Of a DNA stretch of 64,000 nt, positions 9,993 to 58,699 are shown in pieces. Origin of the DNA: Membranipora membranacea. Its lineage: Eukaryota > Bryozoa > Gymnolaemata > Cheilostomatida > Membraniporidae. The translations under genes were made by a program, and so were the position numbers. The stretch covers positions 16,001,001 to 16,065,000 of the forward strand of contig OU612067.1 of the NCBI GenBank assembly GCA_914767715.1, written 5' to 3'. Numbering within the stretch: the stretch's first letter is position 1; each line of letters begins with the position of its first letter. A model generated the notes under the pieces. It was not told the DNA's origin. It did not search any database and saw only the letters and a program-made list of their open reading frames with translations.

Positions 9993-10099
9993 CGATGCCC
10001 CATCTATTAATTAGATTTTATTCTGTAACTCCATGTCCAAGTACATTGAAAGCATAGACTGTGAAGCATACACAATCAACAATTTTTTAGCTCGATACT

Positions 10100-10909: not shown

Positions 10910-11159
10910 CAACTTTGCAGGGACATTTTTGGAAATTTGCAATAATCACGCACCCTTTGAAGATTTTAAAACTAAACTTTAAAACAAGAAAGCATCAAAA
11001 CCATGAATTTTTGGTGAAATTTTGAAACTGATTCAAAACAAAGACTATTTATTCCGTCAGACCCTAAACAACCCTCTAAATGAAAAGCTGAGATAAAAAT
11101 TTAAAATTTTTTGAAATCTTGTGACTAAAGAGGCTCGAAAAGCAAAGTACAATTTTTAT

Positions 11160-19041: not shown

Positions 19042-22000
19042 CTAGTTATTTAGAGAAGTATAGACATGGTTATCTTCTCCTACTTCACATTCACGATTCA
19101 CGATCTCATACTCTGCACCTCTAGACTGAATATTTCCAGCGATCCTAGCACCAGAGTTCTCATATGTGTTGGCTTCATTGTTGACTTGATTGCTGTTTTC
19201 AGAATAAACAGCAGGATTAGTTCGGGAGAGGTCCAATCCCACCTCTTCGTACTCAGTTGGATTGTTTATTCTACCTTTAAAACAAAAGATCATCACAAAT
19301 TGATTGGATTTAATTGAAATAATTTTCTGTATCATTATTTTTATATGTTAAAATAGATTTATCTTGCTATCAATTATAATTCTAGTTTATATGTTTATCC
19401 CTTATACCGCTACAACATTTATCTTGCCGAAAAATATATTCCATTTCAGTTTTGAATAACCATCAAGTTAAGTTGCATAAGTTTTGCATAAACACAAGGA
19501 GGGGAATTATTCATGACCTGTAGCTGATGGTTTTGTACGGCATTAGATGGATTCAATTTAATCTGAAACCCTAATGGAAGTTTTGAGTATATAATATATA
19601 TTGATTTGTGTCATTGCTGAATTCATACCGTTAGTGACGCTTCTTTCCGCTACAAGTTGCTGAGTTTTCCCAGATGCGGTCAACCTGAAATGTTCAATTC
19701 ATATGAGATAGAGAGTTGCTTGATAAGATTCAGATTAATAAACATCTGAACTTTGCTCTTTAATATGATGATGATTGATGGAATAACGACCATTACTAGG
19801 ATTACAGGCAATGCTGAGTTTTACCTTTGAATCTCTGTAGTCAACCTTCTGCTTCTGATCACAAAGAAAACCAGCCCACCAGTCAGAAGTATGCCAACAA
19901 CTCCGAGGACAGAACCTATAATGACTGCATGATGTTGATCTCCTACAACTAATGATAAATTCATTTGTGCAAATATCTGATTAACTGAAGCAAGGATGTG
20001 TTAAAATATCCAGTATAATATACTGGATATTTTAACACATTTATGCTGGAAATATCCAGTATGATTGTATTGGATGCAAAGAATGCCATGCTCTTCCAAT
20101 TCACTATAAAAAATAGAATGTAGGCAATATTAAGACGGTATGACAATATTTGTTCTCAGCATTAGAAAGGAGTTATCCTCTTCTTAGCCAAGGGAGCACA
20201 ACTCAGTGTTTACAACGCAAGACTTACTCTGCAAAATTAATCGATCATATTTTTGGCAAGACTGTTTGTGAGATGCAATGAAAATTCCCCAGCCTGTTTG
20301 GAAGCCAGAGAAACTAACTCACCCTTAATTTTCTCAGCTGTCGCCTGATGCTGTCGTACATCTGCAAACAGCAAAATAGTTGATGAACATATCCGATTCG
20401 TGTTTTATATGGTGCAATTTTGGTACATATAAGATATATAAAAAGAGGGTCGTGAAAAAAAAAACACTTTTTCTGAAAGAGGCAGCTGCACACTGTCTTA
20501 GAAATCTGAGAAGTCAAGCTATAATTTAGTAGTGCTCATCAGAATGCCTCTTTATGAGTGTCTTTGGGACAGGTACAGTCAATTAGGATAAAATACATTC
20601 ACATTTTTTCACGAGCTGATAACTCCGAGGCCAAATTATAGCCAATTTTCATTTCAGTCACTGAGTAGACTTGGTTTTTTATAAAACTCAATGGTAAAAC
20701 ATGACTATTGCCATGGTCAAACCGCAGACTTTTGCGCTTGAGCTTAAGACAACAAAGCTTACCAGTAGAAAAAATGGACTCGCTCACCAGAAATCTTTTG
20801 ACATTTCACTACCCAATCATTTAGATGGAATGGTTTGGAAGGGTGACAATCCAGCTTCCAGCTGCAGAACAAATAATACTCATTTCGCTGACACCATTTA
20901 GCAGCTGATAGCCAGGATCACAGCTTATGTTTAGTACAGTGTGGTATATGAAAGATGTTAGTAGTGAGCTTGGTATTGTGCCAGCGTCGATTAGCTCTAA
21001 CGTATCACATTGTACTCAATATAAAGTAATAAAAAAGTTGTAAGTGCTTTGGATGAGTTTAAATGTTTGTGTGCCCAACAATCCTATACAGAGACACAGG
21101 GTAGAGGTCAGACAGGAAAGGACAGAGGTCTGGCATTGACCAAATTAAAGATTATCAGTACTGATGTTGGACAATTGGTCAACGAAAAAACTGTGTTATT
21201 GCCATTCAGTTCAGTTCAATATTTCTAATAGTTATCTAGCAAAAATGGATATCTTTGCCTTCTTACATGATGACTAACCTTCCTCACACAGCTGAGATGT
21301 TGACCAGGTTTTATCACTCTGACATGTTATAACTCCAGTCAGTTTAGTAAAACACCCATCACATTCATAATCTACTGTCTTCATGTAATCTACTGTATCT
21401 TTAGTAGTTGATATTGTGACATGAGCCTGGGCAGTGAGTTCTGTTACATTGCACTGTACTGTAGAGTAATATTGGGCATTAGTTAACGTGATGTATCGCT
21501 TTTTAAAATATTTTAATATTGTATTGGTGATGTCTAATAATTATTTACACAGTTGAAACCTCCCAAATATTTGACATTGCGTTGCATTGACCTCTGACAG
21601 TTCATTTTGGAGCAAAACGTACCCTTTTTAAATTGAGACCTCTGTGCCTTGTTATTGAGGTATTTGATTAGTTTTTGCTTTCACCATATAGAGGAGGCAT
21701 GTCACTAACTTGAGGAGTGACATTTTAGTAAAACTTTGTGTTTTTAGGACTCCTGTCTTAAAATGGGTTTTTGCAATAGTAAAGAGGTCATTTCTGACCC
21801 CTCATTACATGCGACCCCAACAATGCAGGAACTAAAATTTCCAATTTGTTATACCATTTTTGTCTTGTACTGTCACTTCCATAAATAATCTTACCAGCTT
21901 ACAGATCCTGGTTGTCACAGCTGTAACAGATAATAACCCAAATTTTCGCAATTTTAGGGGAAAATTTTCCAGCCAAAATTCAGAAATCCAGAAAGGTGTC

Positions 22001-25000
22001 TGACAAAATTGTTGTCAGCATGATATATAACACAGTATGGTCTAGGTTTTGATCGAAGCGATTATTGATTATGGCTTTACATCTTGAGATATTTGGATTT
22101 TTGTGGCTAAACTAGCTTTATTTGGTCCAAAACATGCACTCCTTTCCAACCAAAAAACTGAAAATAGGTTAAACAACATATTATACAACTCAGCTTACAT
22201 TAAACTAGAGAGTATTTCCGAGGTTTTGATCGTGACGTTTGATGACAAATTCAATAGTAGAGAAGTTATGAGCATAGACATTTCTCTGTCGATGCTAAGC
22301 AATCACCCAAAATAGGTGATCCACTGCATAGATTTTCACCACGCTTTTGCATAACGTAATTTACTGGATCATTTTGCCCATTGCTGCCCAAATGTTTTCA
22401 ATGTGTTTTAGTTAATGTTCAATTAATCAAGTTAGAAGCATGCGGTTTAAAAAATTTTGCAATATTAAACATTAGTCAGACTACTAGCAACGTGTCAATG
22501 AAGGAATTTTTGAGATGGGACAAGTAGTTCCTGAGAAACTGAAAAGGCGATATATCACGTTAAGCTTTATCAGTAAAATCTGGGTAATAAATAAAAAGCG
22601 CAACATTATAAAAGATATAATTCCGGAATGCTAATGGTATGATTGGATTTAATGGGTTATAAGTGAACTTATTGTTCTTCGCACCACTCAGAGTTAATCT
22701 ATGAAGGTTAATCGAGAAGCTTATCACAACTTGAAAGGTCATGCTGCGCATTCCTCATTTTATACCTAAAATTCTCACCTGGTGTACATCTGAATGAGTC
22801 TGCGATGTGTGTATCATTCCATTTCCAGGGTATGGTCTCATTATCTAGAGTACTACAAGATACTATTACAGAATCTGTACCATATGGAGATTTGTATCCT
22901 TCTTCACATGTGTACTCTATTGTTCTGTTTGGTGAGACCTCAGTTTGTATTGAGTTTTCAACTTCTTGTGATTTCTCTGTACACCACGGTACTGAAACAG
23001 CAACAAAACTCATAATATAGAATGGGTCCAACAAAAGCAGCCAAGATTTTTTTTTTCATTGGCTATTTATGATATTACTCCCGTTACAACAATTTTTATG
23101 CAAGAGAGTGGTCATCAAAAGTGAAGTATTAAGATGCTCGCTGGCCGAGATTTCTTGTTAGATTGTTATGCAATAGGTACATACCTACTATACACTTTAC
23201 ATCATTTGTCCAGGTAGCACCATCCCCATTCCTCTCACAGGTGATATAAGATTTGTCGTTGTGCTGATAGTTATTGAGACATTGATACTGTACAGATGAG
23301 TTCGGTAAGTAGTAAGATGTGTTAGTAGCCTGGAACACAGCATTCTCTATCATGGGGGGATTCGCACATCTTAAAACTGGAAAATTATACACATTGATAA
23401 TGTCAATTAGATTTTGTGAGCGGATTGATATTCACACACCTATATATTGAGAAACCACCCAAAACTAACTGGTTTGGCTTCAGAAAATAACAAGCTTTGC
23501 GACAGGTCAGACCCATCAAGTTTAGATATGGATTGTGCTTTTATTATGTGCAATGAGTTAATACCTTAAGGAAAAGAGGGAGTCCAATGTTTTATAAGGT
23601 TTGAAATGGTGCTCAAAAACATTCATCAGAGACGCAAATAAAACTTTCTAACTTGAAATTTTACTATACACACCTGAATATCTTATCATAAACCTCAGAG
23701 AAGCTGAATCCTCATCTGCATCGGTGGTACTCTCACAAGCAAATGGTATTGTACCCGCTGGTGAAGACTGAACTTCTACGACTGTACCAATAGGATCAGT
23801 TGTTCTTAAGATGTCATGCTCTCCTATCTTTATCATATGGCCGTTTAGTATTTTCGGAATTAAAAGTTCAAATCTTAAAGGAGCGTTTTGGGGGAGAGAA
23901 CTGATAATAGAATTACAGGGATGAAGTCCGATGAGATTGATTGACGGATTTGGAGGGCTGATAGTGCCATCTAGTGACACATTCCCCAACATAGTGTTCT
24001 CACCACACAGGACCACTGAAATATAAACAAGAGATACAACGCATTTTTTAATGTATTTGTAAATGTTTTCTTAAAATTCAAACTTTCTAAACTAAAATCT
24101 GCCATCAGGTACCACTGTAGTAACAAGCAGTGGTACTTTTGTACAGTGAGTAAGTGGAGCTCAGCTCCACTTGGTTATAAACACCCTTCAGCTCCACTTC
24201 AATTTTTTTTATTCCTTGGATAAGCGGGGCTCTCAGCCTGGGAGGATTCGAAACCTGAGATTTGATATTAGCATGTCGCATAGTGGTATTTTAAAGGTGT
24301 AAAACGCCTTGAGCATAAACAGCTGAGGGTATGTCTGAGATGGTACCGAAATATTGTTGGGTGAAACACCTGAGATTTGAAGATTATGTGCAAAGAATAG
24401 CTGGCAAAGCAAGTCAAAGAATGTATGTTGTTGAAAAAATGTTGCATCTAAGTTCAAAGCCACTAGCTTTCATGATGTTCATAAGTTGTGTAGTTTCCCT
24501 CTTTATGTATTTATTATCTGCCTGTTTTGCACACAAGCATATGTACCATAGACAAGAAATTACTAAGGAAAGTTTTTAATTTAATTGTTAAAGACAACTC
24601 CTTGATCACATCATACACAATTTTCTAGAGCGATGCCCTCAAATGCAAGTTCCATACTCTAGTAGCAAGTTCCTTTATTGACAAAGTATATGCATCCTTT
24701 TCTCGCAACATTTCATGTTTGTGATAGCAAGTAAATAAATAAAAACCTAGAGCATTTCTTGTAAACATAAAATCGTAAATAATTTTAGATTTGATCCAGA
24801 TGAACCAATTCATATGGACTAACCAAGGCCGTCGCCACAGGTGAAAATGAATCCTCATGATGTTAAAATATGATGTTTGTAAAAATATTGATTTAAAGGC
24901 GCCAGGGTAGAAAGGCATAACTAATGTAATGTGATGCTATTGAAATCATTACCTGGATTTATCCGGTTCACCTGCAAAATCATTTTTTTAACATGTCTAA

Positions 25001-27652
25001 AATTCCAATTTCTATTTAGCCATAATGATCTCTTTCGCAAATCTCTGGGATTGGCAGTTCAATAAGAGCATAGCTTATCACAAGTGAAATCAAATACCCA
25101 CAACAAATACCACACATTATTCTCATGCAAAAGTTTGATGTTATCTTTATTATTCATCTCAGTGTTGATATTCCATAACGCTTAGAAATCATTGTTTGAT
25201 CATTGATTTAGAAATGACTTGAATAGGCAGCGCAGTGAGAGTATTATTACAGTGGGTGCTGTGAGAGGCATTATTAGTATAGGCAGTGCAGTATTATTTA
25301 CTTAGCTTATCACAACTAGAATCTAATACTGGATCATTCATTAATAATATAGCATAAATTATTGTAAGGCAACATTTAGCATTGTTTATATTATATTATT
25401 CATCTATGCCAACGAGCAAAATCTGAGTTTTTAGCTTACATTCTAAAATCCCCTGAGTAGCATACTTGCCAAGTAATCTAAATACAAAATAGGGAGATTC
25501 CATTTTACGGCGATACTGCACCACAACGTGGTGCTTCGAGGGGGCGAAGCACCCGAGTCACCCACCTGGGGGATTGGGGTCCCGTCTGCAGAAGCTCTGA
25601 GAGCGTTTCCAGCCACTAAGAAGGGCTAAAAAGGTATATTTGACCCCAAATAGTACTAAAATATCAAACTGAGGTGAAATACACTTTAAACAATTACAAT
25701 CAATCCATGGGCCCCTGGGAATCTTACATACATGCCTTTACATTGTCAATGTCCAGTATCAAACACCCCATTGGCAAAGTAGAGACATGTAAGTCCCAGG
25801 GGCCTTTGCCTGTCAAGACAGGCTACAAGTGCCCATGCATCATCAAGATCTGAAAATGTGCTCAGTCACAGACAGTGAGAATCCAGATAAGGTACTATAT
25901 TTTTGTTTGACTAACATTAAATATGTTTCAAAGTCTTTGGTCCGATCCTTGTTAAATTGTAGTGGACCTTTGGAATTGTTAGGTTTCTATTTTCCTTCAC
26001 TTAAATTTAACTTGAGTAGACAGTACTAAAAAATGTGTGATCTGAAAGGAAATGAAAACTAAAGGTATGCACTTGACTAGCTACTTTATATTGTAACCAA
26101 TGACTGTCAGTGTTGTGAGTTATGAGAGGATGCTTTTGGTCATTTACAATAATAGGCTGAATCTTAACAGAACAGGTAAATTTGTTAGGATTGTTAAATT
26201 TGATAATTGCTTTCAATTTTGTGTTCAAAGACCTTAACAGTAACTAGTCAACAACAACATGTGCTTGGAAAACTATCAAAATTGCGATTGGACTGTTTTC
26301 TCTAAAATCTGGAGGAAATAGTGAGATTTACAAAAAGTGGGAGGTGGGTGTAAAAATCTGGAGGGTCACGCCTAAATCGGGAGACTTGGCAAGTATGCTG
26401 AGTAGCCTGAGTTGAACCCAAAAATCTGAGTAACTCGGGCTAAACCTGAGCGGTTGAGAGCCCTGCCGAAAACAATGGGGAGTAAACTGTTCTCATGCTG
26501 GAGCCATACTAATAGATGGTAAATACATTAATATTTGAGTGTTGGCTATGTGTTGTCAGTCCAGATAAGTTATTTCTGCAACCGCCAATGGCAAGAAAAT
26601 GGAGTATAAAAGCAGAAGCATCTACAACAAATTATATCTGTTGCTGGGAAATGGGGATATCTGGCTCCCTCTGGCATAGCTATAAAAGACAGGTGATGTC
26701 AGAGGATATTGGCTAACAATAAAGCTGCCCATTTGCAACCTCTACAGGAGGTTGCTGGCTAAACCTTGCCGGCTGGGAGGATTGATTGATGAATTAAAAA
26801 ATATAAATAAGTAAGAGCTCCACTCCATTATCCCTTACAAAAGTACCACTGGTAACAAGCAAACAACCTGTCCAGTTTTATCATGGTATCGTAAATATAA
26901 TGATGACTCTGGCGCCCACATATTCAAACTTTAGTATCAGATATGAAACTTTGCAGAGTATGAAGCTGTCTCCACAAAGGCAAACACTCCAGGGGTTTGT
27001 AAATTAGAATGAACGATGTGACTTTTGACCAAATTATCACTTTCACTTTCACTTCCCTGAAAACATCTCTCATTTGGTCTTCAAATAAACAAATTCATTA
27101 CGAAATTGTTTACTCAGAATGTACATCAATGAGTGACAGGGTTGGGAAAGAGACCCCTAGCAGGTCTCACTCTATGAGCAATTGGATAGGTGATTTGGAA
27201 GTTTCTATTTAAAGTCCTACCTTACCTCTGTAATAGAACTTGAAGCTGAAAGATGAAGAGTTTCCTGATGTAGATATGTTTAACTCTGAAATGCCAAGGC
27301 TTATTACAACAAAGTTTAGATTAGTCGATTTAGAATCACAATAAACTGTATTCTTTACGGTAAACGCTGCATCCCCTGCACCACATCCAACTTTAGTAAC
27401 ACCGACCAGTGTAACATATCCTGACTGCGATGATCCTAATAGCGTAAGCCTACACTCAGTACTACTCTCTGATGAGTTATGTCTTATTATACCAGCTCCT
27501 CCAGAGCCAACATTGATCACTGTTGGACTGTTAGCTGATCCACATGGTAAGTCATGTATCAGAAGATCCTGAGATGCCGAGTAGTTCACATAATAGAGTA
27601 GGGAGCAAATCTGAATAAATGTCTTCTCTTTCAATGCAGTCAACTTATTCAT
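19042..27652 (-). CDS. R2: CUB-like/CCP receptor with ITAM-like tail; CCP4 frameshifted
   Basis: Exons on the complement: 27652-27226, 24015-23674, 23376-23185, 22991-22779, 21458-21279, 21014-20788, 20361-20323, 19942-19825, 19684-19629 and 19274-19042. They encode a signal peptide, two CUB-like domains, CCP1-4, a 13-residue linker, a membrane helix (IIGSVLGVVGILLTGGLVFF) and a tail. Exon lengths equal R3's for the first five exons. CCP4 is 227 nt where the frame needs 228; a one-base loss creates a TAA at 20823-20821. As read, the product ends before the membrane, giving a secreted ectodomain. The exon is phase 1-1 in the family but is now one base short, so only skipping it whole would restore frame. 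Tail tyrosines: YEEV, YSEN, YENS, YEIV, YTSL. Intron 1 holds a hAT-like insertion. It is the inverted partner of R3. Confidence 0.85.
19996..20040. repeat. Perfect 45-base palindrome in R2 intron
   Basis: Two 22-base arms (19996-20017 and 20019-20040) around a single A at 20018 are exact reverse complements. The arm contains TTAAAATATCCAGTATA, and a related AATATCCAGTAT recurs at 20050-20061. It would form a strong hairpin and may be a small inverted-repeat element. Confidence 0.9.
24128..26851. mobile_element. Non-autonomous hAT-type DNA transposon, 2724 bp
   Basis: The ends are inverted repeats starting CAGTGGTACTTTTGTA, with a further shared TGGAGCTC inside. They are flanked by a perfect 8-base direct repeat GTAACAAG at 24120-24127 and 26852-26859. 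An 8-bp target duplication and CAGTG-type termini are hAT hallmarks. No transposase ORF was seen inside, so it needed one in trans. It lies in R2 intron 1; the matching R3 intron (31293-31792) is only 500 bp and lacks it. Confidence 0.9.
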
Positions 27653-27826
27653 TTTGAATATTTCTAATCTTAAGATGGCAATACTTGTTGATTAGAACTG
27701 TATCATGCTACAGCTATATAACTAATAACCAGTATTAAGCTTATATCAGTATGCTTATAGTCTACTTCCTTATCTGGCAAACTTAGCGTTCCTCTATATT
27801 TATTTTCCAGTAATCCAATGAGCTTA
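27653..27826 (-). promoter_or_regulatory. R2 promoter-proximal region
   Basis: Nearly identical, as reverse complement, to the R3 upstream block 30690-30865. It contains TTATATAG (complement of 27714-27721), about 60 bases upstream of the start codon, a possible TATA element. Conservation of the block in both genes suggests they begin with the same regulation. Confidence 0.5.
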
Positions 27827-27855
27827 GACAAAAGCATATCCCGAGATGGCTAGCT

Positions 27856-28139
27856 GGCTAGTGTGCTCGAACACAGCGCTGGCTAGTGTGCTCGAACACA
27901 GCGCTGGCTAGTGTGCTCGAACACAGCGCTGGCTAGTGTGCTCGAACACAGCGCTGGCTAGTGTGCTCGAACAGAGCGCTGGCTAGTGTGCTTGAACACA
28001 GCGCTGGCTAGTGTGCTCGAACACAGCGCTGGCTAGTGTGCTCGAACACAGCGCTGGCTAGTGTGCTCGAACACAGCGCTGGCTAGTGTGCTCGAACACA
28101 GCGCTGGCTAGTGTGCTCGAACACAGCGCTGGCTAGTGC
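27856..28139. repeat. 25-bp minisatellite, 11 full copies
   Basis: Units begin GGCTAGTGTGCTCGAACACA at 27856 and every 25 bases to 28106, with a partial copy at 28131. Only two variants are seen: ACAGAG in the unit at 27956 and CTTGAA in the unit at 27981. High identity implies recent growth. Confidence 0.97.
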
Positions 28140-28140
28140 G

Positions 28141-28352
28141 CTTGTTGCGCGAGAGGCCCGAGTTCAAATCCCGGTGAAAACAGATTTGTTTTACATACCA
28201 TCTCTTTCACTACTTGGTGGTTTATAGCACAATTATAACATGTTTGATGCGCGAGAGGCCCGAGTTCGAATCCCGGTGAAGACAGATTTTTTACATTTAT
28301 CATCTCTTTTACTACTTGGTGGTTTGTACCACAATTATAACATGTTTGTTGC
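28141..28352. repeat. Tandem duplication of about 106 bp
   Basis: Two copies (about 28143-28246 and 28247-28351) each hold GCGCGAGAGGCCCGAGTTC, AATCCCGGTGAA and CTACTTGGTGGTTT, so the B-box is doubled. Confidence 0.85.
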
Positions 28353-28600
28353 GCTATATTCTATGGCTGTACTCACTGAAAATAATTGAGGGGGGAGTTC
28401 TGCCACCTTATAGGTCAACGATACTCAGGTTGTCTTCAACATAGGTTGCATGGAAAGGACAGCCATTTTAGTTTGCACTTGTAATGACATCGCCAATCGG
28501 CCATCCATCGTAAACTCAATCGACAACCTGAGTGTTTATCATCCACATCCCTGAAGTTTTGTGGCATTTATGATCGCGGCATTTCTAGTAAGTTTAATCA

Positions 28601-29429
28601 CATTTAACTTCCTTATCCTTATCCTTTTGTGCTCAAAGATAGCCTGTGCTCCTAAACACAACAAATTAAATAATGTGGCATGGATCAATTGAATCACTGC
28701 ATGTTTACAGCTTGCATTTCAGTCTAAAAAGTAAAATAGTCGTTGGATTTTTATAAAGGGTTTGATTGGATAAGTTATTCATGATAGGGTCCTGCAAACA
28801 CCTGTCATTGTATTTAGTTATTATTTCAGTTTCATAGTCAAATTCAGTTGGCCCACGCCACATGACCAAATAATTGAAAAACAAATATGTGCCAATAAAA
28901 ACAAAAACCTGCATTGCTTCTGTTGGTTTCAATTTTAGCTCATTATGATTTGACATAATTATGATTTACTGAAGTTATTCCAAATTTTAACTACGAAAGA
29001 ACTGTGAACAAAATTTTCTTAGCACTTAAGCTATAATATATTTTCATTCTCAAATTTCAATCTTGCTCTTTAGCAACTGCTGCCATTGTTTTCAACATTC
29101 GGACAAGTACTGATTGGATTTATTACCCGCAAGTTTAGCACGGATATAATTTGTTTTACCTTTTTGTAACCATCTCTAGTAAAAAGTATTGTTATCATAA
29201 TCGACTTTTTTTGCAGAAAATTATATCACGCTGGTAGTTCTCCATGCCGTACCAAGAATCATAACCAAACAATCACTCACAGGTTAAGCGAAAAGAAGTG
29301 AACTATAATACCTGTACATATTATATTATGAACTTTTATTAACCACCGATCAATGCATGAAGCAAATAAGACCATGTGAAAACAAAAAAGAAAAGAAGCA
29401 ATAAGAAGGCATTGACGTATTTATGAGTA
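28601..29429. other. Non-coding stretch between R2 and R3
   Basis: AT-rich. A short frame at 28705-28956 has no recognisable family or splice context. Confidence 0.4.
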
Positions 29430-30115
29430 TTTATAAAAAAGGCTTTTTCTGCAAAGAGCAATATTGGATTTAGGAAGGGTCGTGGTTTTATGATAGTGCC
29501 TGTAATTTGTTGCTAGGTGATGTAGATGATGGTGATGTGGTTGGCTGGTGTTCTTTCTGACATTATTGACATACTTTGGGCAGCATATGTCCAGATAAAC
29601 ACTTAGTTCTGTTAAATTTAATGCTGCAAGACGCTTCTCATAATGTTCTAACCATGGCAAAATGACCCCGAGACATAACTTCTGTAGTCTTTCAAGAATT
29701 TCCTTGTCCCCTTTCGATAAGTATGGGAACCAACTCGGTGCTGCGTACGAGATCACTGACAGAACTCTGGATCTATAAAATGTGACCAGACTAGACGTGG
29801 AGACCCCAACTTTCCTTAGCCGAATAATGGCATGCACAGCTGGCCTTAACTTACTTATTACAGAGTCAACGTGAACACTGAATCTCATATGATTGTCAAA
29901 GCAAACTCCTAAAAGTTTGACTGATGAATTTTGTGAGATGGGCATGTCATTTATCTTGATAGGATCACAGATGATGTTTTTTTGAAGGGTTAGAGTCAGT
30001 GATTGTGACTTAGTGACAGTTAACAGCATTGAATTTTCTTCACACCAGCTTGCCGCATAATCAGCTGCAGACTGTAGAGGATTGTCATGAAATACGAGAT
30101 ATGCTTTATGTATTG
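29430..30115 (-). pseudogene. 3' fragment of a LINE reverse transcriptase
   Basis: A minus-strand frame contains late RT/thumb landmarks: AASWCEENSM, then VKLLGVCFDNHMRFSVHVDS, then LRKVGVS, FYRSRVLSVISYAAPSWFPY and LERLQKLCLGVILPWLEHYE. This is the part after the catalytic core and is usual in Jockey/CR1-like elements. It is 5'-truncated, as LINE insertions often are. The frame is open for about 200 codons from 30029, so the copy is fairly young. It may belong to the same family as the + strand element at 9-11.8 kb, whose 3' half is missing. Confidence 0.85.
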
Positions 30116-30689
30116 ATAGTATATTTATGTATATATGTATTTATGTATGTTAATAGTATTGGTCGATGAGAGCGGGTTCCATCAGTGCATTTAGTCTAAT
30201 TTTTTTATTCGATGAATCTACACCCCCAGTCAGTAGCCTGTGTGTGTGTAAAACAGTAGCTTGGTGTGTTCCGGGAGGGTGGTATGTTTGACCATTCCTC
30301 CTCGCTTGAAATGGGATTTGTCTTCCCTCTGCAACATCACACAATTTCAAATTATACTTGTAATCTTTTTAGTCTTCATGCTCTATGTTTATGATGCGAT
30401 AAAAAGCAAGCAATTGTAAATTATAGTTGAAAGTTGGTGATAGATTCTCTTAAAATTTTGAGGGTTAAGTTGCATCCCCAATACATAAATTGTGCATTCA
30501 TCACGGCTGAAACTTTTGCAATTTTAGCACATCAATCCACAGGGATGATGTAGCCTGGGCAGGCTGTCATGTCGGAGGTGGCATGACATGATGCTTTTAT
30601 CGCAACACTACAATGCTAAATGGGTATGAGGAGGAAATATTATGAATTTGATTAATGTTTATTAAGTGATTATTACCATTGATTGAGTT

Positions 30690-30865
30690 CATTGGATTGA
30701 GGACCCCAGGCTAAAATAATATAGAGGAACGCTAAGTTTGCCAGATAAGGAAGTAGACTATAAGCATACTGATATAAGCTTAATACTGGTTATTAGTTAT
30801 ATAGCTGTAGCATGATACAGTTCTAATCAACAAGTATTGCCATCTTAAGATTAGAAATATTCAAA
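30690..30865 (+). promoter_or_regulatory. R3 promoter-proximal region
   Basis: Inverted copy of 27653-27826. TTATATAG at 30797-30804 lies about 60 bases before the ATG. The start ATG at 30866 is the one conserved in both paralogues. Confidence 0.5.
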
Positions 30866-33800
30866 ATGAATAAGTTGACTGCATGGAAAGAGAAGACAGT
30901 TATTCAGATTTGCTTCCTTCTCTATTATGTGAACTACTCGGCATCTCAGGATCTTCTGATACATGACTTACGATGTGGATCAGCTAACAGTCCATCAGTG
31001 ATCAATGTTGGCTCTGGAGGAGCTGGTATAATAAGACATAACTCATCAGAGAGTAGTACTGAGTGTAGGCTTACGCTATTAGGATCATCGCAGTCAGGAT
31101 ATGTCACACTGGTCGGTGTTACTAAATATGGATGTGGTGCAGGGGATGCAGCATTCACCATAAGGAATACAGTTTATTGTGATTCTAAATCGACTAATCT
31201 AAACTTTGTTGTAATAAACCTTGGCATTTCAGAGTTAAACATATCTACATCAGGAAACTCTTCAGCTTTCAGCTTTACATATTATTTTAGAGGTAAGTTA
31301 GGTATTCAAACATCAATGTAATCACTAGTTGTTGTTCATGAGCATTATTATCTAATCACGCTCTGTCATTTTGTGTGATAACAAAAGCCTTTTCCACCTA
31401 TTTTCTTCAATAAAATGATCATGGGATCATCACAAAAATAAAATTATCACAAGAACTCTGTAGAAATGCGAGATCAATTTTTTTTTCATATCATTGTAAT
31501 GCTCGTAGTACTGTGAGTAGCAATATAGGGACCTAGTGTGCACCTTACCTGCCAGAATTGAGTTAAGTTCCGACTTTCAAAAACTTTTGGGGTCCTGATG
31601 GGGTCTTCCCAGGGTTTAGCTCCCCTGCTGAAAGCTGAAGCAAAAGAGTCTGCAGTGATTAAAGACAATTTCTTTTTTTTATATATGTTCATAGGGAATG
31701 AAATGCGAAGTTTGCATCTCACATTATTATTGAATTAGTTCTTTACTATTTGATATTACAATAATGAGTGTGTATAATTGTTTATATTTCAGTGGTCCTG
31801 TGTGGTGAGAACACTATGTTGGGGAATGTGTCACTAGATGGCACTATCAGCCCTCCAAATCCGTCAATCAATCTCATCGGACTTCATCCCTGTAATTCTA
31901 TTATCAGTTCTCTCCCCCAAAACGCTCCTTTAAGATTTGAACTTTTAAATCCGAAAATACTAAACGGCCATATGATAAAGATAGGAGAGCGTGACATCAT
32001 AAGAACAACTGATCATATTGGTACAGTCGTAGAAGTTCAGTCTTCACCAGCGGGTACAATACCATTTGCTTGTGAGAGTACCACCGATGCAGATGAGGAT
32101 TCAGCTTCTCTGAGGTTTATGATAAGATATTCAGGTGTGTATAGTAAAATTTCAAACAAATGAGTTTGACTGGCAGCAAATATATCTCCAAGCTCCTTAC
32201 CTGCTTGTGTAAAATTTTGTTGAATGTTTCAATATTATCAGACATAATTTGTACGCTATAGCAGCTGAGCTAGCGTTTCCCCTGTCTGTAATCCATCTGT
32301 TGGCGAATATTTGTCCTTTTACAGACAACAAAGTTAGAAAGTTTTATTTGTGTCTCTGATGAATGTTTTTGAGCACCGTTTCAAAACTGATAATACATCG
32401 GACTCCCCTTTTCGTTAAGGTATTAACTCATTGCACAGAATAAAACAACAATCCATATCTAAACTTGATTGGTCTGACCTGTCGCAAAGCTTGTTGTTTT
32501 CTGAAGACCGACCAGTTAGTTTTGGGTGGTTTCTCAATATATAGGTGTGTGAATATCAATCCGCTCACAAAATCTAATTGACTTTATCAATGTGTGTAAT
32601 TTTCCAGTTTTAAGATGTGCGAATCCCCCCATGATAGAGAATGCTGTGTTCCAGGCTACTAACACATCTTACTACTTACCGAACTCATCTGTAAAGTATC
32701 AATGTCTCAATAACTATCAGCACAACGACAAATCTTATATCACCTGTGAGAGGAATGGGGATGGTGCTACCTGGACAAATGATGTAAAGTGTATAGTAGG
32801 TATGTACCTATTGCATAACAATCTAACAAGAAATCTCGGCCAGCGAGCATCTTAATACTTCACTTTTGATGACCACTCTCTTGCAAAAAAATTGTTGTAA
32901 CGGGAGTAATATCATATAGCCAATGAAAAAAAAAATCTTGGCTGCTTTTGTTGGACCCAGTCTATATTATGAGTTTTGTTGCTGTTTCAGTACCGTGGTG
33001 TACAGAGAAATCACAAGAAGTTGAAAACTCAATACAAACTCAAGTCTCACCAAACAGAACAATAGAGTACACATGTGAAGAAGGATACGAATCTCCAAAT
33101 GGTACAGACTCTGTACTAGTGTTCTGTAGTACTCCAAATAATGAGACAGTACCTTGGACATGGAATGATACACACATTACAGGCATATTCAGATGTACAC
33201 CAGGTGAGAATTCTGAGCACTAAATGGAGGACTTGCAGCAGTTTTTTTGCTTTCTCGCACTTTGATATCTAGGCTTTTCATGCCAACAAAGAACGCTACG
33301 TACAATACTACCTAGCTTGTTACCAATAACCTTCCACCAAGGTCCTTACTCTGCTCTTCTGCACACATTATTAACTTACCAGATTCTGCTTGCCAAAGCT
33401 TACTTCAATATGTCTATATCTGCTACAGTGCAGTGCAACGTAACAGAGCTTTCAACCCTGGCCAATGTTACCATCTCAACTACTAAAGAGACAGTAAATT
33501 ACACAGAGACAGTAGATTTTGAATGTGATGAGGGTTTCACTAAGCTGACAGAGGATTTAGCATGTCAGAGTGATAAAACCTGGTCTAAGTATCAACTGTG
33601 TAAGGAAGGTTAGTCATAGAACACAGCAAAAATCACCTTCTATGGCTTGCGTAAAAATCTATTTGTTATGATTGAATTGAACAAAATAGATTTTCGTTTT
33701 TCTTCAATTAGTTGACTGTGGTTCCGCAGAGATTATAATAAATTTCTTTACTTTTAGACCTCAACTTATTTGGATATTTAGAAATTAGCCGTTGACATTT

Positions 33801-36800
33801 GATGAACGAGGTATCATTTTTTTGATACGGTACCTTTTAATATGTCTAATCACTAACAACTCTTACTAGCATGCTTGGAACGTTTCCTTTTTTCTCTACA
33901 GTGCAATGCAATCTGCCTGAATTTATCAACGCCAATGCATCAAGCTCTCCACTAACATCTCTTCCTTACCGCACTGTACTAAACATAAGCTGTGATCCCA
34001 GCTATCAGCTGCTTAATGGTGGCAGAGAATTGAGTATTATTTGTAATGCAACAGGAAGCTGGAATGTCACCCTTCCAAACAACCCCATCTCAGGTGATGG
34101 GGTAGTGAGATGCGAAAAGATTCCTGGTTAGTCCGAGTTTCTTTTCCAGGCTTTTTTTTGCCATTAGTGAGATGACTTTCACTTTTTATTGAATTAATTT
34201 TGCAAGAATGATATGTTGCGAGGCTTTAACACTTTTTCTTGTTTTTAATATTTGAATGAATATTGGTTCTCTAAACCTCTCTGTTTCTTCTCAAAATAAA
34301 CAGGATAACATCTTTCTTGCTAATGGCTAATTAACCCAGTAAGGTGTAACACGACTGCGAGGATTATATATTTGTACCATTTGTACCATTTGTATCATTT
34401 ATGTTTTAGGTACCACTGGCACAGAGCCACAAGAAGCTGGCACAGGACCTGCTGGGCTCACTGAAATGCAGATAACCCTGATAGCCTCTGTACCGACAGG
34501 AGTACTATTTATAACTGCTGTAGTGATCGTCGCAGTTTGTTGTGTAAGAAAGAACCAAAACCAACCGTAAGTCTGTCCGTGTAGTGGATATCTGTTCGAT
34601 TATTAGAAGCAGACTTGCTTTGTCAGAGCATTAACCTGGGTGTATAAAAGCAGTAGGGATTTATGCCCTGAAAAGACCTGTTACGGGTTTTGCAGCTCCA
34701 TAGAACCTTCATTTTGTTTATCATTTCTGCTCGCTCCCTACTCTAATCCCGCATGGTTTCTAATTGTATTTTTGAATCTCATTGTCTTTGAACCAAAGAT
34801 TTTGAATCGGTGATGGGACATGAACTTGATTCTGCACAATATGGTCCTGAACTGGTCCAGGCTATATGACTAGATGTATAGATATGAGGCCATTTCGTTG
34901 TGGTGAGATCTCGCAGCCTCTAATCATAAGTTACTCCCATGGACCCAAGTACTACTCTACAGGTGTAGTATTGTAAACTGTCCCCCGCGCGAAAACAACC
35001 CCGGGACACTTTACAATATTGTAAACTGTCCCGGGGACACTTTACAATAAAAACAGGCCTATTGTAAACTGTCCCCCCCTATTGTAAACTGTCCCCCCTA
35101 TTGTAAACCGTCCCCCCCTATTGTAAACTGTCCCCCCTATTTGTGACTGTCCATATCGAGAGCCCAGCTGTTTATCACCATTCTAAATGGGTCAGATCAT
35201 CTAAGTGGAGCATACCATGATGTTCTGGCTGCCACTATGATGGCCAAAGTTGTACCATGGGGATGGTGGTGGTATCTCATTGAATGAGTGTATAAAGCCT
35301 CTTTTTCATATGGTACTTTGGGGATCTATTTTTCGCAAACACTAGTTATTTGAAGCTCCTATGATTTAGAGATGTCTGGTTTGCGAAGAAAGGTGCACTA
35401 AGCCAACAGTGGATAGATGTGTAGTTGCCACATCACAGAACACACATACTTTCATTGCAGGTTCATGAGCCGCGCGAAAACAACCACCCCATTCATTCAT
35501 CATAAAATCTACCTCAGTCAAGCATTTGCCTAGGAGTGATGGCAGTCAGTCACAAGTGTGAGCGGGAGAAATAATTACTTTTGAGCTTTTCATATTGTGA
35601 GGATGGGTATTGCACTGTAAAATATTGCTTAAGCCGCGCGAAAACAACCACCCCCTAAGCTGTCTTATAAAGATATCTGTTAAAAAGTCTCAAACATAAT
35701 GAACCATGATTTGGCAGCCATAATTCGATTGTCATAAGGTGACTGTGTACCAAATTTCAGATAAGTAGGTCAGAAGTTAATGACACAACGGATGATATGT
35801 CGTTCTTTGCAAGTTCATGAGCCGCGCGAAAACAACCACCCCATTCATTCATCTTGAAATCTACCTCAATCAAGAATTTGCCTGTGAGTGATGACAGTCA
35901 GTCACAAGTGAGAGTGGGAGAAATAACCGCTTTCGAGTTTTTCATATTGTGCCGCCTGGTATTGGACTGTAAAATATTGCTTAAGCCGCGCGAAAACAAC
36001 CACCCCCCAAGCTGTCTTATAAAGATTATCTGTCAAAAAGTCTCAAACGAAATGAACCATGATTTTCTAGCAATAATGTGATTGTCATGAAGTGACTGTG
36101 TACCTAATTTTGGATTAAAAGGTTAGAAATTAATGACACAACGGATGATATGTCGTTCTTTGCAAGTTCATGAGCCGCGCGAAAACAACCACCCCATTCA
36201 GTCATCTTGAAATCTACCTCAATCAAGCAGGCCGCACAATATGAAAAGCTCGAAAGCGGTTATTTCTCCCACTCTCACTTGTGACTGACTGTCATCACTC
36301 ACAGGCAAATTCTTGATTGAGGTAGATTTCAAGATGAATGAATGGGGTGGTTGTTTTCGCGCGGCTCATGAACTTGCAAAGAACGACATATCATCCGTTG
36401 TGTCATTAACTTCTGACCTACTTATCTGAAATTTGGTACACAGTCACCTTATGACAATCGAATTATGGCTGCCAAATCATGGTTCATTATGTTTGAGACT
36501 TTTTAACAGATATCTTTATAAGACAGCTTAGGGGGTGGTTGTTTTCGCGCGGCTTAAGCAATATTTTACAGTGCAATACCCATCCTCACAATGTGAAAAG
36601 CTCAAAAGTAATTATTTCTCCCGCTCACACTTGTGACTGACTGCCATCACTCCTAGGCAAATGCTTGACGGAGGTAGATTTTATGATGAATGAATGGGGT
36701 GGTTGTTTTCGCGCGGCTCATGAACCTGCAATGAAAGTATGTGTGTTCTGTGATGTGGCAACTACACATCTATCCACTGTTGGCTTAGTGCACCTTTCTT

Positions 36801-39800
36801 CGCAAACCAGACATCTCTAAATCATAGGAGCTTCAAATAACTAGTGTTTGCGAAAAATAGATCCCCAAAGTACCATATGAAAAAGAGGCTTTATACACTC
36901 ATTCAATGAGATACCACCACCATCCCCATGGTACAACTTTGGCCATCATAGTGGCAGCCAGAACATCATGGTATGCTCCACTTAGATGATCTGACCCATT
37001 TAGAATGGTGATAAACAGCTGGGCTCTCGATATGGACAGTCACAAATAGGGGGGACAGTTTACAATAGGGGGGGACGGTTTACAATAGGGGGGACAGTTT
37101 ACAATAGGGGGGGACAGTTTACAATAGGCCTGTTTTTATTGTAAAGTGTCCCCGGGACAGTTTACAATATTGTAAAGTGTCCCGGGGTTGTTTTCGCGCG
37201 GGGGACAGTTTACAATACTACACCGGTTTGTTACTAATATGTTAAACAACTTTGTTTCCAGGTCAGAATCTAAAGGAAAAAGTGACACTGAAGGCTACGG
37301 TGAGTAATATTTTATATTTGAAAGTCTCAGTCACTGATAACATCCTACTCGCATTCTCACTCAGGCCTAGACATCGCTTCACTTTCAACTTCCCTGTTGA
37401 AATATAGTCTTATCACTGATAGCTGAATATGTGAATAGATGTTAACATGTAACACAGTTTAAGTTAATACACATTCCGCTGATATTTCTACACCTATCGC
37501 ACCTATATTAGATATGAACGTACCAGAAGATAACAAAGAGAGCTTCAGTATTTTTTTGTCAAAGCCTAATCATCCTTTAGCGAAACTTGAATGTAAATGG
37601 AGTACGCTGCTTGGCTCTCTATGCGGATTTGGTCTGGTCTACTATGTTGTATGTCTGCATCTAGGAGTAGTATTCTAGCCCCAATACGATTGGCGTCAGC
37701 TTCATTCATGACATAGCATTGGGTGGTATGGGAGGCGACTCCCAAAATTGAGATAACTATAACCCGTAATATTATTTTCCCTAGACAATGAAAATCTGTA
37801 TTTTGAGCTGGAGCGGCCCGATGTAGTAGCACAAGGTTTGAGCAATGCATTGTGCTAGTGCTAGGTGTTAATGCTTTGCCACTTCTCATCTGCATCCCTA
37901 TCCAAGCATCAAATTATAATTATAGCCGATCAAATGCTTGCCCTCTACCCAACTAAAAAACAATCCATGCTATATAGCCTGAGTTCTCTGTATATTCGGT
38001 TCCAAAGACTCAAGTTACTTGCACACTCTGTGATCATAGAACCCTCAGGTTTTGATGCTATCTTGCAATAATATGATTGTCCGCTTGTCGTTTTAAGTTA
38101 GCTTTCAAGGCAGCATGAAAGTGGTATCATGAACCAGTTTTATTAGCTGATTTGACTCGGTATCTTACCACTTTTCCTTGAAATTTATCTTTCTAGCAAG
38201 ACCTCAGCAATCTTGGCTGTTGACGGGAATACAAGGAGGGACACCAACCTAATCTCTTTTAATATTTAGTCAGTAAACAAAATGTAGGTTTTTTCCTCAA
38301 GGGCAGGGGATGGCCAAATCCAATAAAATTGTTTGGCTGATTCTGCCATGCACCTTTATCAAGACAAGGAACTTCCTTCTTGAGTTTTTTCTGACATAGC
38401 CTGCCACTAGTACTATGTATTTCAATCAGCTGACTGCGCTGGTACACAACCAAACTTAAACCATTGGAAGGTTGTACAATGCTGGCAATATTGGTTTACG
38501 CTTGCTTCAGATCCCTAGAAGGAACAAGAAAAGCATTATATTATTATCTAGTATAGCTTTTACTGATATTGTAAGCACACAAACTGCACTATAGCAAAAC
38601 AAACACCAAACTCCTGAGTTGTTTTGTAATGAAATGTTTTTATTTTTTTACTTCCTCACAGGTGTAATCATTAGAACCTATGCAGTGTTGTGTATTGTAT
38701 GTTGTGTCGCTAACAAAAGTTATGCGGAGTAAATTAAGTAAAGACGGTATTGATTTTGTAATCCCCTCTCAAGTTTTACTTCCTTGTAATAGTCATCCAT
38801 CCCTAGCGTGCCTGTGCTGCGTGATGCAGACAATTTTTAGCCTTGTCACGCCGCTGGCCGCATTACAAGGCTAGTCAATTATAGATTAAAATAGCAGAGA
38901 GATTGCTTATATTCAACCACTGCAAAGGAATATACTCCATTTCGATGGATTCAATCGTTCGCCCCTAAAAATCTCTTTCCTTTCGATTTCGAGCTACCCT
39001 GTGTGGACTTGTGTTGCTTGCCTCACTTTTAAGTTGATTCTGCAGCTGATATGAGTTGCGAGCTTTGCATGCTGATTGTTGGCAGTATGCCGATTGCCTT
39101 TTAAAATCTGTGTATGACTTGTTTGTTGCACATGTATCCATTGCAAGATGTCCCATAAGTTCCCAATAGCCAATGGCTATCACAGGTTTTCGAGCTGGTA
39201 TACCATTATTTCGCAGTGCAGGCCGCTAGTTGCTAGTATTGATCTAGATACCCGCTTTGCCAAAGTTTACTGTGTTTCGGCTTAGTTTTGTGGAAAGAGT
39301 ATTTATCCTATGTCTGTCATCTTTGTAGTGAATAACCATTCTATTGGAGCGTATGACACAGTCGAGCTGGAAACACCGTCTGGTCCAGCTGCAAATGGCT
39401 TTAAGAAGTCATCTAACAAACCGAGCAAAAAGTCGAAAATTAAAACAAATGGAACTGCAGTAGCGGAGTCATCAGCCAATGGCGCTGGGTAAGTTATCAG
39501 ATTTTATTGAATGTGATCAAAAGAGATATGGTGAAATGCGTTCATATCACCTCAACAATAAATTCATTTAATTTCGAATCACCTAAAACTGAATCTGAAC
39601 AGCAAGTTTGCTAACACTGGCGTGTTTGTGGAAGGGGGACAACTCCCTCTATGGCAATTCGTACGCAAGAGTAGACATGCACTGTCCATCCCACCAGTAA
39701 AGCTTGACAAGACAGGCAAAGCTTAAGGCTAAGGCTTATCTCAGATGGCCGATAATCAACTATCAGTTGTTCGCAAAACTTTTATGGCCAACATCATGAA

Positions 39801-40147
39801 TGAAACTTCCCAATTTTTGATTTTGTAGACCAAACGACCTATATACTGCAGTCACTCCAAAGATGAAACCAAAGAAAACAAAGCCTAATGAGCCACCTAC
39901 AGCTGCCGAGCCTATATACGAGGCTGCTCCGCCCGTCCCTGTCAAACATCACGGGGGGCAGGAGCCTGATCTAGTAGAGAACGATTTATACGAGCAAGCA
40001 CCTGGGAACGCTGCAGGGTATGCTACGGGGGCTGATGATGTTAAATTCGTTGATAATGATATTTACGACCAAAGCGGTCCACCGCCAATGCAGTCATCTG
40101 ACATTGTTGCCTTTGTAGACAATGATTTGTACGACTACAACCCTTAA
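30866..40147 (+). CDS. R3: CUB-like/CCP receptor with repeated NDLY-motif tail
   Basis: Ten exons give 750 aa: 30866-31292, 31793-32134, 32608-32799, 32991-33203, 33429-33608, 33902-34126, 34410-34566, 37262-37299, 39329-39488 and 39829-40147. A signal peptide (about 1-27), CUB-like 1 (to 142), CUB-like 2 (143-256) and four CCP domains (257-526) are followed by a Thr/Gly/Pro linker fused to the membrane helix in one exon (ITLIASVPTGVLFITAVVIV), then CCVRK. The tail of about 170 residues is unlike R2's: a basic Lys-rich part, then NDLYTAV, PIYEAA, ENDLYEQ, DNDIYDQ and a terminal DNDLYDYNP, plus AYDTVEL near the start. Acidic residues before LY/IY resemble Src-family kinase sites. All splice phases close, and no defect was found. 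Intron 7 carries a 2.3-kb foldback element. Head-to-head partner of R2. Confidence 0.9.
34965..37224. mobile_element. Foldback element with about 990-bp inverted arms
   Basis: 34965-35955 and 36233-37224 are near-perfect reverse complements around a spacer of about 277 bp. Ends read GGTGTAGTATTGTAAACTG. Inside each arm are short repeats of ATTGTAAACTGTCCCCC and the word GCCGCGCGAAAACAACCACC, eight copies in all. A 352-354-bp subunit beginning GTTCATGAGCCGCGCG is tandem in the left half (35461, 35813, partial at 36167). No target duplication or ORF was found. It sits in R3 intron 7, between membrane and tail exons. Confidence 0.9.
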
Positions 40148-57175: not shown

Positions 57176-57395
57176 ACCTAATCTGAAGAGTTTGAAATTT
57201 TGTGTTTGTATCATGACCGAAAATACAAGTAAAAACATCTGTTTGCAACAGCCAGTATGGTTATTAGCATGTTAGGTCTGGACAACTTATACATTTTGCA
57301 TGAAAGTTTGGCTATTGAGCTAACAATATAAACTTACCTCTATTACATATCAATCTTGTTATTGAGTATGTACAGTAGTGATAGACCTACTTATT
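56210..57395. repeat. Arm 1 of R6/R7 inverted duplication
   Basis: Near-identical reverse complement of 62830-64000, covering R6 exon 1, its 5' flank of about 210 bases and part of intron 1. Confidence 0.9.
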
Positions 57396-58687: not shown

Positions 58688-58699
58688 GTTGTTCTTTAA

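What the first reader, a model, noticed from the sequence alone, without database searches (positions are those of the whole stretch)
19042..40147. R2 and R3: one ectodomain, two unrelated signalling tails
R2 (-) and R3 (+) are head-to-head inverted duplicates. They share promoter block, signal peptide, two CUB-like and four CCP domains with matching exon lengths. After CCP4 they part: R2 has a separate linker and an ITAM-like tail, R3 a fused linker/membrane exon and a long tail of repeated NDLY-like motifs. This is the layout of vertebrate paired receptors (KIR, PILR, SIRP families), where near-identical outer domains feed opposite outputs. I know of no description of it with CUB/CCP receptors in an early animal. 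Opposite signs of signalling are inference.
Basis: partly seen in the sequence, partly recalled or inferred. Interest (0 to 1): 0.92.

Follow-up and report, generated by a model that had tools for sequence, protein, structure and literature searches.

The report
Repeated mirror-image receptor pairs, two tails
In the genome of what appears to be a colonial sea-mat animal, this stretch holds one of several mirror-image receptor gene pairs in which two genes share almost the same outer end but carry two different signalling tails, a layout known from vertebrate immune receptors; what the receptors recognise, and whether the two tails act in opposite ways, is not known.

Summary
R2 (-) and R3 (+) are head-to-head genes sharing a ~150-base upstream block, signal peptide, two divergent exons and CCP1-2 (91-99.5% identical by exon); CCP3 (81%) and CCP4 (79%) diverge before the tails part. 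It is one of seven such pairs in a ~0.4 Mb cluster: each of the seven R3-type-tail genes found there has an R2-type partner head-to-head. Outer domains match within every pair examined, including one pair in a second cluster 5.4 Mb away. Synonymous divergence, low in the heads and higher in the stalk, points to gene conversion; the tails are under purifying selection.

Corrections: R2's CCP4 exon has a one-base deletion and early stop in this assembly. No ITIM is in either tail, the R2 tail is not a strict ITAM, and neither membrane span of R2/R3 is charged, so opposite signalling is unsupported. The CUB label is unproven. Best reading: paired receptors giving two tyrosine-based outputs per specificity; nearest vertebrate parallel read is SIGLEC11/SIGLEC16. 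No RNA or binding evidence was available.

The parts
27653..27802 (-). R2 upstream block (promoter/5'UTR) matching R3's
   Evidence: 148 of 150 positions equal to 30716-30865, then no match
30716..30865 (+). R3 upstream block matching R2's
27226..27652 (-). R2 exon 1: signal peptide and first divergent outer domain (e1)
   Evidence: 94.8% nt identical to R3 e1
23674..24015 (-). R2 exon 2 (e2), CUB-like at best
   Evidence: 98.8% nt identical to R3 e2; fold search of the R3 copy
23185..23376 (-). R2 CCP1
   Evidence: 99.5% nt identical to R3
22779..22991 (-). R2 CCP2
   Evidence: 90.6% nt identical to R3
21279..21458 (-). R2 CCP3
   Evidence: 80.6% nt identical to R3
20788..21014 (-). R2 CCP4 exon with a one-base deletion and in-frame stop
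20323..20361 (-). R2 linker exon (tentative)
   Evidence: splice sites and phase fit; not looked for in other A genes
19825..19984 (-). R2 transmembrane exon, A type
19629..19684 (-). R2 juxtamembrane exon
19042..19274 (-). R2 A-type tail exon (YEEV, YEN, YEIV-x12-YTSL)
30866..31292 (+). R3 exon 1: signal peptide and e1
31793..32134 (+). R3 exon 2 (e2)
32608..32799 (+). R3 CCP1
32991..33203 (+). R3 CCP2
33429..33608 (+). R3 CCP3
33902..34126 (+). R3 CCP4
34410..34566 (+). R3 linker plus transmembrane exon, B type
   Evidence: hydropathy peak at residues 550-572
37262..37299 (+). R3 tail exon 1
37785..37835 (+). R3 tail exon 2 (NLYFEL)
39329..39488 (+). R3 tail exon 3 (AYDTV)
39829..40147 (+). 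R3 last exon, repeated NDLY-type motifs and stop
51376..57238 (-). R4 (pair P3, A member): e1 56788-57238, e2 55094-55441, CCP1 54545-54736, CCP2 53923-54135, CCP3 53490-53669, CCP4 52974-53198, transmembrane about 52099-52224, juxtamembrane 51917-51970, tail 51376-51567
   Evidence: no stop in the exons read
62986..63436 (+). First exon of R4's B-type partner (pair P3); the gene runs beyond the window to about C3:16071266
   Evidence: 98.9% nt identical to R4 e1

Best explanation
R2/R3 is one unit of a multi-copy paired-receptor system. Each unit is two head-to-head genes encoding type I membrane receptors with the same outer head (e1-e2-CCP1-CCP2, in two pairs also CCP3) on two fixed tail types. 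Gene conversion between the inverted arms keeps the two heads of a unit alike while heads differ widely between units (likeness shown by sequence; conversion inferred from synonymous divergence). One ligand is therefore expected to engage both receptors and raise two different phosphotyrosine signals: the A tail (YEEV / YEN / YE[MI]V-x11/12-YTSL) an ITAM-like, SH2-docking output, the B tail (NLYFEL, AYDTV, repeated NDLY-type sites) a multi-site docking output. Ligand sharing, phosphorylation and the nature of each signal are inferred. The likely role is immune or self/non-self recognition, by analogy and because the animal is a colonial bryozoan. In this assembly R2 carries a disabling one-base deletion in CCP4, so this unit may run on R3 alone or use a CCP4-skipped R2.
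For: Seven B-tail genes in the main cluster, each with an A-tail gene head-to-head. Four pairs with all outer exons, membrane exon and tail located, plus one with a decayed A member. Class-matched heads also in the two pairs seen only by exon position, and a pair with another head in a second cluster. Head identity within five pairs 92.5/97.1/95.9/97.7/87.1% against 57.1% mean between; best of 120 permutations. dS within a pair, e1+e2 against CCP3+4: P0 0.203 vs 0.655, P1 0.105 vs 0.200, P3 0.022 vs 0.373, Q 0.316 vs 0.887; P2 0.045 vs 0.589 for CCP3 alone, its broken CCP4 being left out. Tails conserved across pairs, omega 0.08-0.74 (A) and 0.15-0.38 (B). The genome has three SH2 pieces (two domains' worth) followed by two tyrosine-phosphatase pieces on one strand within 7.2 kb (C9:12128490-12135640), as in SHP phosphatases; joining was not checked. 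Colony fusion limited to related individuals is described for bryozoans (PMC11686985, passages).
Against: No transcript, protein, ligand or expression data. R2 is frame-broken here; HA is degenerate and HB has a stop in a small tail exon. 8 of 15 A-tail last exons in the main cluster have no B partner, nor have the 11 at 6.75-6.86 Mb. Inverted repeats can convert without selection. Homogenisation is uneven: P0 and P3 share one head class, P0A is marginally nearer P3B (92.8%) than P0B (92.5%), and P0B's e2 is nearest the unpaired gene SA (96.6%) rather than P0A (85.9%). Pair 7 showed no e1 match in either member, with about 0.6 kb between its two e2 exons.
Confidence: 0.66

Rival explanations
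1. Head likeness is a by-product of inverted-repeat gene conversion with no functional pairing: A and B are ordinary duplicates doing separate jobs, and conversion keeps erasing differences in the arms nearest each other.
For: The shared block is nearest the symmetry axis and fades outward; ATG-ATG distances in four pairs are 2.4-5.7 kb, near enough for frequent conversion. Head omega is fairly high (0.49-0.98 for e1+e2 within pairs), compatible with weak constraint.
Against: All seven B genes found in the cluster keep an A partner, one of them decayed; both tail types stay under purifying selection; heads differ widely between classes yet match within each of five pairs, including one in another cluster.
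Confidence: 0.22
2. A and B are obligate partners that form a heterodimer from a shared bidirectional control region, rather than two competing receptors; an arrangement like that proposed for Botryllus fester and its co-receptors.
For: Head-to-head layout; 150-base near-identical upstream blocks in R2/R3; adjacent, co-expressed receptor pairs are described in Botryllus (PMC12065747 passages).
Against: No near-identical head shared by the Botryllus partners is described in the passages seen, whereas here heads are near identical; many A genes lack a B partner.
Confidence: 0.2
3. True paired receptors with opposite signs, A activating and B inhibitory or the reverse.
For: The layout resembles SIGLEC11/SIGLEC16 closely (PMC5701461 passages); SH2 and phosphatase pieces in SHP order are present; R2 and P1A tails hold a TxYxxV site.
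Against: No strict ITIM in either tail type, ITAM only under a relaxed pattern; no charged residue in the membrane spans of R2 and R3.
Confidence: 0.25
4. Assembly artefact or a collapsed pair of haplotypes.
For: Inverted near-identical sequence can be mis-assembled; R2's one-base deletion could be a base-call error.
Against: Arms differ in introns, tails and about 3-5% of bases; other pairs with other heads lie elsewhere on the same chromosome-scale contig.
Confidence: 0.03

Closest known systems
SIGLEC11/SIGLEC16 (primates; PMC5701461, part of abstract and passages seen)
   Same: Head-to-head genes about 9 kb apart; ~3 kb N-terminal block homogenised by repeated gene conversion; different tails; a frameshifted allele of one member (4-bp deletion, SIGLEC16P).
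   Different: V-set/C2-set Ig domains; one pair; an inhibitory partner and an activating partner that signals through an ITAM adaptor. Here CCP domains on divergent exons, at least seven pairs, both tails long and tyrosine-rich.
CEACAM paired receptors (PMC5112662, PMC2832619; search listing only)
   Same: Similar ligand-binding ends with different cytoplasmic signalling motifs, coevolving.
   Different: ITIM/ITSM against ITAM-like tails; vertebrates; Ig family (recalled).
KIR, PILR, SIRP families (recalled, not from a call)
   Same: Near-identical outer domains on different tails in gene clusters.
   Different: Ig-fold outer domains; activating members use short tails with a charged membrane residue, absent from R2 and R3.
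Botryllus fester family and fester co-receptors (PMC12065747; outline, abstract and passages seen)
   Same: Receptors of a colonial invertebrate with a sushi domain, tyrosine-motif tails (co-receptors), genes in adjacent pairs in polymorphic clusters.
   Different: Co-receptors carry Ig domains; partners are proposed heterodimers; no shared near-identical head on two tails in the passages seen.
Crassostrea CgIgIT2 and Hydractinia Alr (PMC11999971, passages seen)
   Same: Invertebrate surface receptors with ITAM signalling (CgIgIT2) or an allorecognition cluster (Alr).
   Different: Ig-like outer domains; no mirror-image two-tail pairs in the passages seen.

Membership tests
Paired receptors (functional definition, wording as in PMC5701461) | Highly similar outer domains in linked genes | tested here: met
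   Head identity within five pairs 87-98%, mean between 57%
Paired receptors (functional definition, wording as in PMC5701461) | Similarity kept by gene conversion | tested here: met
   dS of e1+e2 1.9 to 17 times lower than of CCP3+4 (P2: CCP3 only) in five of five pairs; indirect, and uneven in P0
Paired receptors (functional definition, wording as in PMC5701461) | Different cytoplasmic parts | tested here: met
   Two unrelated tails, each conserved across pairs
Paired receptors (functional definition, wording as in PMC5701461) | Opposite signalling roles | tested here: inconclusive
   By motif only: no strict ITIM in either tail, ITAM only with V allowed; sign cannot be read from sequence
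Paired receptors (functional definition, wording as in PMC5701461) | Overlapping expression and shared ligand | not testable with these tools
   No RNA or binding data
KIR/PILR/SIRP (Ig-superfamily receptors) | Ig-fold outer domains | tested here: not met
   Pfam scan of R3 to E 1: Sushi and three weak unrelated matches, no Ig; e1 and e2 alone to E 10, no Ig
KIR-type activating member | Short tail with charged membrane residue | tested here: not met
   Membrane spans of R2 and R3 hold no charged residue; both tails are long. The decayed gene HA has one acidic residue there
Botryllus fester co-receptors | Ig V, sushi and Ig C2 domains | tested here: not met
   No Ig match
ITAM-bearing receptor (A tail) | Yxx[LI]x6-12Yxx[LI] | tested here: not met
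   0 of 5 A tails; 5 of 5 match the pattern with V and M allowed
ITIM-bearing receptor (A or B tail) | [SIVL]xYxx[ILV] | tested here: not met
   0 of 5 A and 0 of 5 B tails; with T allowed at the first place, 2 of 5 A tails
CUB domain proteins (e1, e2) | Pfam CUB profile match | tested here: not met
   No CUB match listed for 8 window ORFs: R3, R4 and R1 e1 and e2, and two further ORFs (HMMER filters drop most matches above E 0.1)
CUB domain proteins (e1, e2) | CUB fold | tested here: inconclusive
Sushi/CCP proteins | Pfam Sushi match over cut-off | tested here: met
   Four stretches, E 3.3e-23, 82.3 bits against 20.7

The most novel reading that the evidence does not exclude
A protostome, non-Ig paired-receptor system in which each recognition specificity is encoded twice, once per output, in mirror-image gene pairs whose heads are kept in step by gene conversion while specificities diverge strongly between pairs: a candidate self/non-self (colony fusion) or microbe-recognition locus of a colonial bryozoan, reached independently of vertebrate paired receptors.
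Probability: 0.55. Interest if true: 0.92.

Novelty: new variant of a known kind. Interest (0 to 1): 0.83.

Why it matters
Paired receptors are mostly known as vertebrate Ig or lectin families (recalled). Here the same logic appears in a protostome with CCP receptors, in repeated mirror-image units with two fixed tails and many heads. That makes the question of why immune systems keep two outputs for one specificity testable by comparison, gives a sequence signature (low head dS, higher stalk dS, constant tails) to search for, and offers a candidate locus for self/non-self recognition in bryozoan colonies, whose fusion is said to be limited to related individuals (PMC11686985, passages). In eight searches of the open-access library (lists capped at 15-20) no listed title or abstract described such a system with CUB/CCP receptors; subscription journals and preprints were not covered.

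Tried and rejected
Assembly artefact: rejected for the reasons in the rivals. Strict ITAM/ITIM reading of the tails: not met. CUB by Pfam: no match. e1 fold: model too poor. Second-look alignment lists GOLD and other domains beside CUBs at tied Z, so no family was inferred from it. Sponge: the sponge assemblies whose sizes I saw do not match 339 Mb. The sea fan Gorgonia ventalina (339.18 Mb, 16 chromosomes) in that list is near in size only. The match to Membranipora membranacea rests on sizes: contigs 1, 3, 5 and 7 of G000 (41072641, 35043895, 29963023, 28508536 bases) against 41.07, 35.04, 29.96 and 28.51 Mb for chromosomes 1, 3, 5 and 7 in the paper, whose total is 339.4 Mb in 21 scaffolds at 38% GC, against 339.3 Mb in 18 contigs here; no sequence was compared. 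A search for innexins, and one for tyrosine kinases meant to look for a Syk-like kinase, did not complete. Pairs 6 and 7 were tested only by exon positions, not by sequence. The second cluster's other three B genes were not read. Linker exons outside R2, and the first small B-tail exon outside R3 and P3B, were not modelled. In one search the letters at exon joints of some tails are approximate and P1A's extra first tyrosine may lie outside the exon. Exon ends of pair Q are approximate. The protein database search could not be made, so relatives in other species were not sought by sequence beyond solved structures.
Full report
What is there. R3 (+) reads open from its ATG at 30866 to the stop at 40147 in 11 exons, 767 aa, with standard splice sites. 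R2 (-) mirrors it at 27652-19042. Exon lengths agree up to CCP3 (427, 342, 192, 213, 180 nt), and the outer-domain exons after the first enter and leave in phase 1, R2's CCP4 excepted. Four Sushi/CCP stretches are significant in R3. The exons before them have no listed Pfam CUB match. A weak model of exon 2 (4 sequences, pLDDT 64) has CUB domains at the top of a fold search, at E 1.1e-3 and worse and with tied unrelated sandwiches; exon 1 could not be modelled. 'CUB-like' is a lead for e2 and untested for e1.

Where the two copies part. Identity by exon is 94.8, 98.8, 99.5 and 90.6% for e1, e2, CCP1 and CCP2, then 80.6% for CCP3 and 78.6% for CCP4. Of the introns, the one between CCP1 and CCP2 and the end of the one before CCP1 align; the first intron and those after CCP2 do not. 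Upstream of the ATG, 148 of 150 bases agree and then nothing does. In R2/R3 the shared unit is upstream block, signal peptide, e1, e2, CCP1 and CCP2, with a more divergent CCP3-4 stalk. In P1 and Q the likeness runs on through CCP3 (96.1% and 87.3%).

R2 is broken in this assembly. Its CCP4 exon lacks one base that nine other CCP4 exons compared have, and an in-frame stop results. With all exons the model stops at residue 516. Because the flanking exons are in phase, leaving out CCP4 gives an open 613-aa receptor. The tail downstream is intact, so the lesion is recent, a base-call error, or bypassed by splicing; I cannot tell which.

The organism. The window lies at C3:16001001-16065000 of a genome given without a name, 339.3 Mb in 18 contigs. 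[quoted passage not shown] the published assembly is 339.4 Mb at about 38% GC (PMC10290214; abstract and passages with the size table; taxonomy). I take this as the source, on sizes alone. It is a colonial lophotrochozoan, not an early-branching animal.

Not one pair but many. A search with the R2-type (A) tail gave 61 matches; the 51 best, at E up to 0.0013, are all on C3, in three clusters. A search with the R3-type (B) tail gave 32 matches with seven B last exons at 15.73-16.07 Mb and four at 21.33-21.48 Mb; the next matches are weak (C3:16534955, E 0.018; C4, E 0.28). All seven B genes of the main cluster are on the + strand, and each has an A-tail gene on the - strand beside it, head-to-head. 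Eight of the 15 A last exons in that cluster at E below 0.001 have no B partner, nor have the 11 at 6.75-6.86 Mb.

Pairs read in sequence. Besides R2/R3 (P2) I read P0 (15779333-15794947), P1 (15937797-15951146) and P3 (R4 in the window with a partner that starts at window 62986), and a decaying pair whose A member keeps a stop-bearing first exon, a membrane exon and a tail while its B member has a stop in a small tail exon. Between R4 and its partner lies a relic with a copy of e1 and a split CCP4. In the second cluster I read one pair, Q, with B on the - strand and A on the + strand, again head-to-head; its e1 to CCP3 are 85-90% identical within the pair and its CCP4 46%. Pairs 6 and 7 were placed by exon matches only. 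In both, the A and B heads match the same head class at similar identity: pair 6 P1 class, 55-61% for e1 and e2; pair 7 P0 class, 65-70% for e2 and CCP1, with no e1 match in either member and about 0.6 kb between the two e2 exons.

Tests. Over five pairs, mean head identity (e1, e2, CCP1, CCP2) is 92.5, 97.1, 95.9, 97.7 and 87.1% within pairs and 57.1% between, and the true pairing is the best of 120 permutations; for CCP2 alone 2, for CCP3 5 and for CCP4 9 of 120 permutations reach it, the true one included. P0 and P3 heads belong to one class, P0A is marginally closer to P3B than to P0B, and P0B's e2 is closest to the unpaired gene SA. Synonymous divergence within a pair is lower in e1+e2 than in CCP3+4: 0.022 vs 0.373 (P3), 0.203 vs 0.655 (P0), 0.105 vs 0.200 (P1), 0.316 vs 0.887 (Q), and 0.045 vs 0.589 in P2, where only CCP3 could be used. 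Within P0 it is uneven (e1 0.071, e2 0.379). Selection on the protein cannot make synonymous sites alike, so exchange between arms, or repeated fresh copying of the head, is needed. Both tails are conserved across pairs with omega 0.08-0.74 (A) and 0.15-0.38 (B), on last exons only.

The tails. Five A tails all carry YEEV, a YEN site (Grb2-type, label recalled), and YE[MI]V-x11/12-YTSL, which meets a relaxed ITAM pattern and not the strict one. Five B tails carry YDTV, YTAV and NDLY-type sites; four of the five carry NLYFEL, the fifth having a stop there. No tail of either type has [SIVL]xYxx[ILV]; TxYxxV (ITSM-type) is in two of five A tails, R2's and P1A's. The membrane spans of R2 and R3 hold no charged residue; that of the decayed HA holds one. 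A third tail type is present in R1. On C9 three SH2 pieces are followed by two tyrosine-phosphatase pieces on one strand within 7.2 kb, consistent with an SHP-type phosphatase; exon joining was not checked.

Mechanism. Shown: two tails, one head, many pairs, in-step heads, constrained tails. Inferred: gene conversion as the agent, shared ligand, phosphorylation of both tails, two outputs. Not supported: a sign for either output. A by-product of inverted-repeat conversion, an obligate heterodimer and true opposite-sign pairing remain open.

Comparison. The nearest parallel I read is SIGLEC11/SIGLEC16: head-to-head about 9 kb apart, a ~3-kb N-terminal block kept alike by repeated conversion, different tails, and a frameshifted allele of one member (passages). 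The system here works like that without being a member of an Ig-type family. Botryllus fester and its co-receptors are the nearest invertebrate pairs seen (passages) and differ in domains and, as far as the passages tell, in not sharing a head. Bryozoan colonies fuse, and one paper says that fusion may occur only between related individuals (passages), which makes colony recognition a natural but untested role. My interest score rose from 0.80 to 0.83 and the odds of the novel case from 0.50 to 0.55 when the organism was identified.

Noticed in passing
window 34962-37224: A near-perfect inverted repeat (arms about 1 kb, 99.6% identical) sits in R3's intron between the membrane exon and the first tail exon; recent fold-back element or assembly feature.
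   Followed up: no
window 3856-8159: R1 (+): a third receptor type with e1, e2, three CCPs, its own membrane exon and a third tail (YEN, YESM-x9-YAAL); a relative lies at C3:15401109-15405973 (L022).
   Followed up: partly
window 48774-48965 and 49869-50033: An A-type tail exon and a partly broken further domain exon on the - strand, apart from the pairs; a similar arrangement at C3:15959068-15965220. The A tail may have been joined to another outer domain type.
   Followed up: partly
window 57898-58744: Relic copy of R4's first exon and a CCP4 split by a frame change, between R4 and its B partner.
   Followed up: partly
window 27853-28142: 25-base tandem repeat between R2 and R3.
   Followed up: no
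window 43847-44103: 10-base tandem repeat array.
   Followed up: no
window 29421-30140 and 9073-11738: Fragments resembling LINE reverse transcriptase and associated ORFs (by eye from ORF lists).
   Followed up: no
C3:6.75-6.86 Mb (L035, L036): A cluster with 11 A-type tail exons, all on the + strand, and no B tails found; outer domains not read.
   Followed up: no
C1, C2, C5, C7, C9, C10, C11 and other contigs of G000: Many other Sushi matches, several in clusters (150 of 549 candidates scored).
   Followed up: no
C3, C6, C8, C11 of G000: Large numbers of tyrosine-phosphatase domain matches in clusters (158 matches, list cut; 150 of 374 candidates scored).
   Followed up: no
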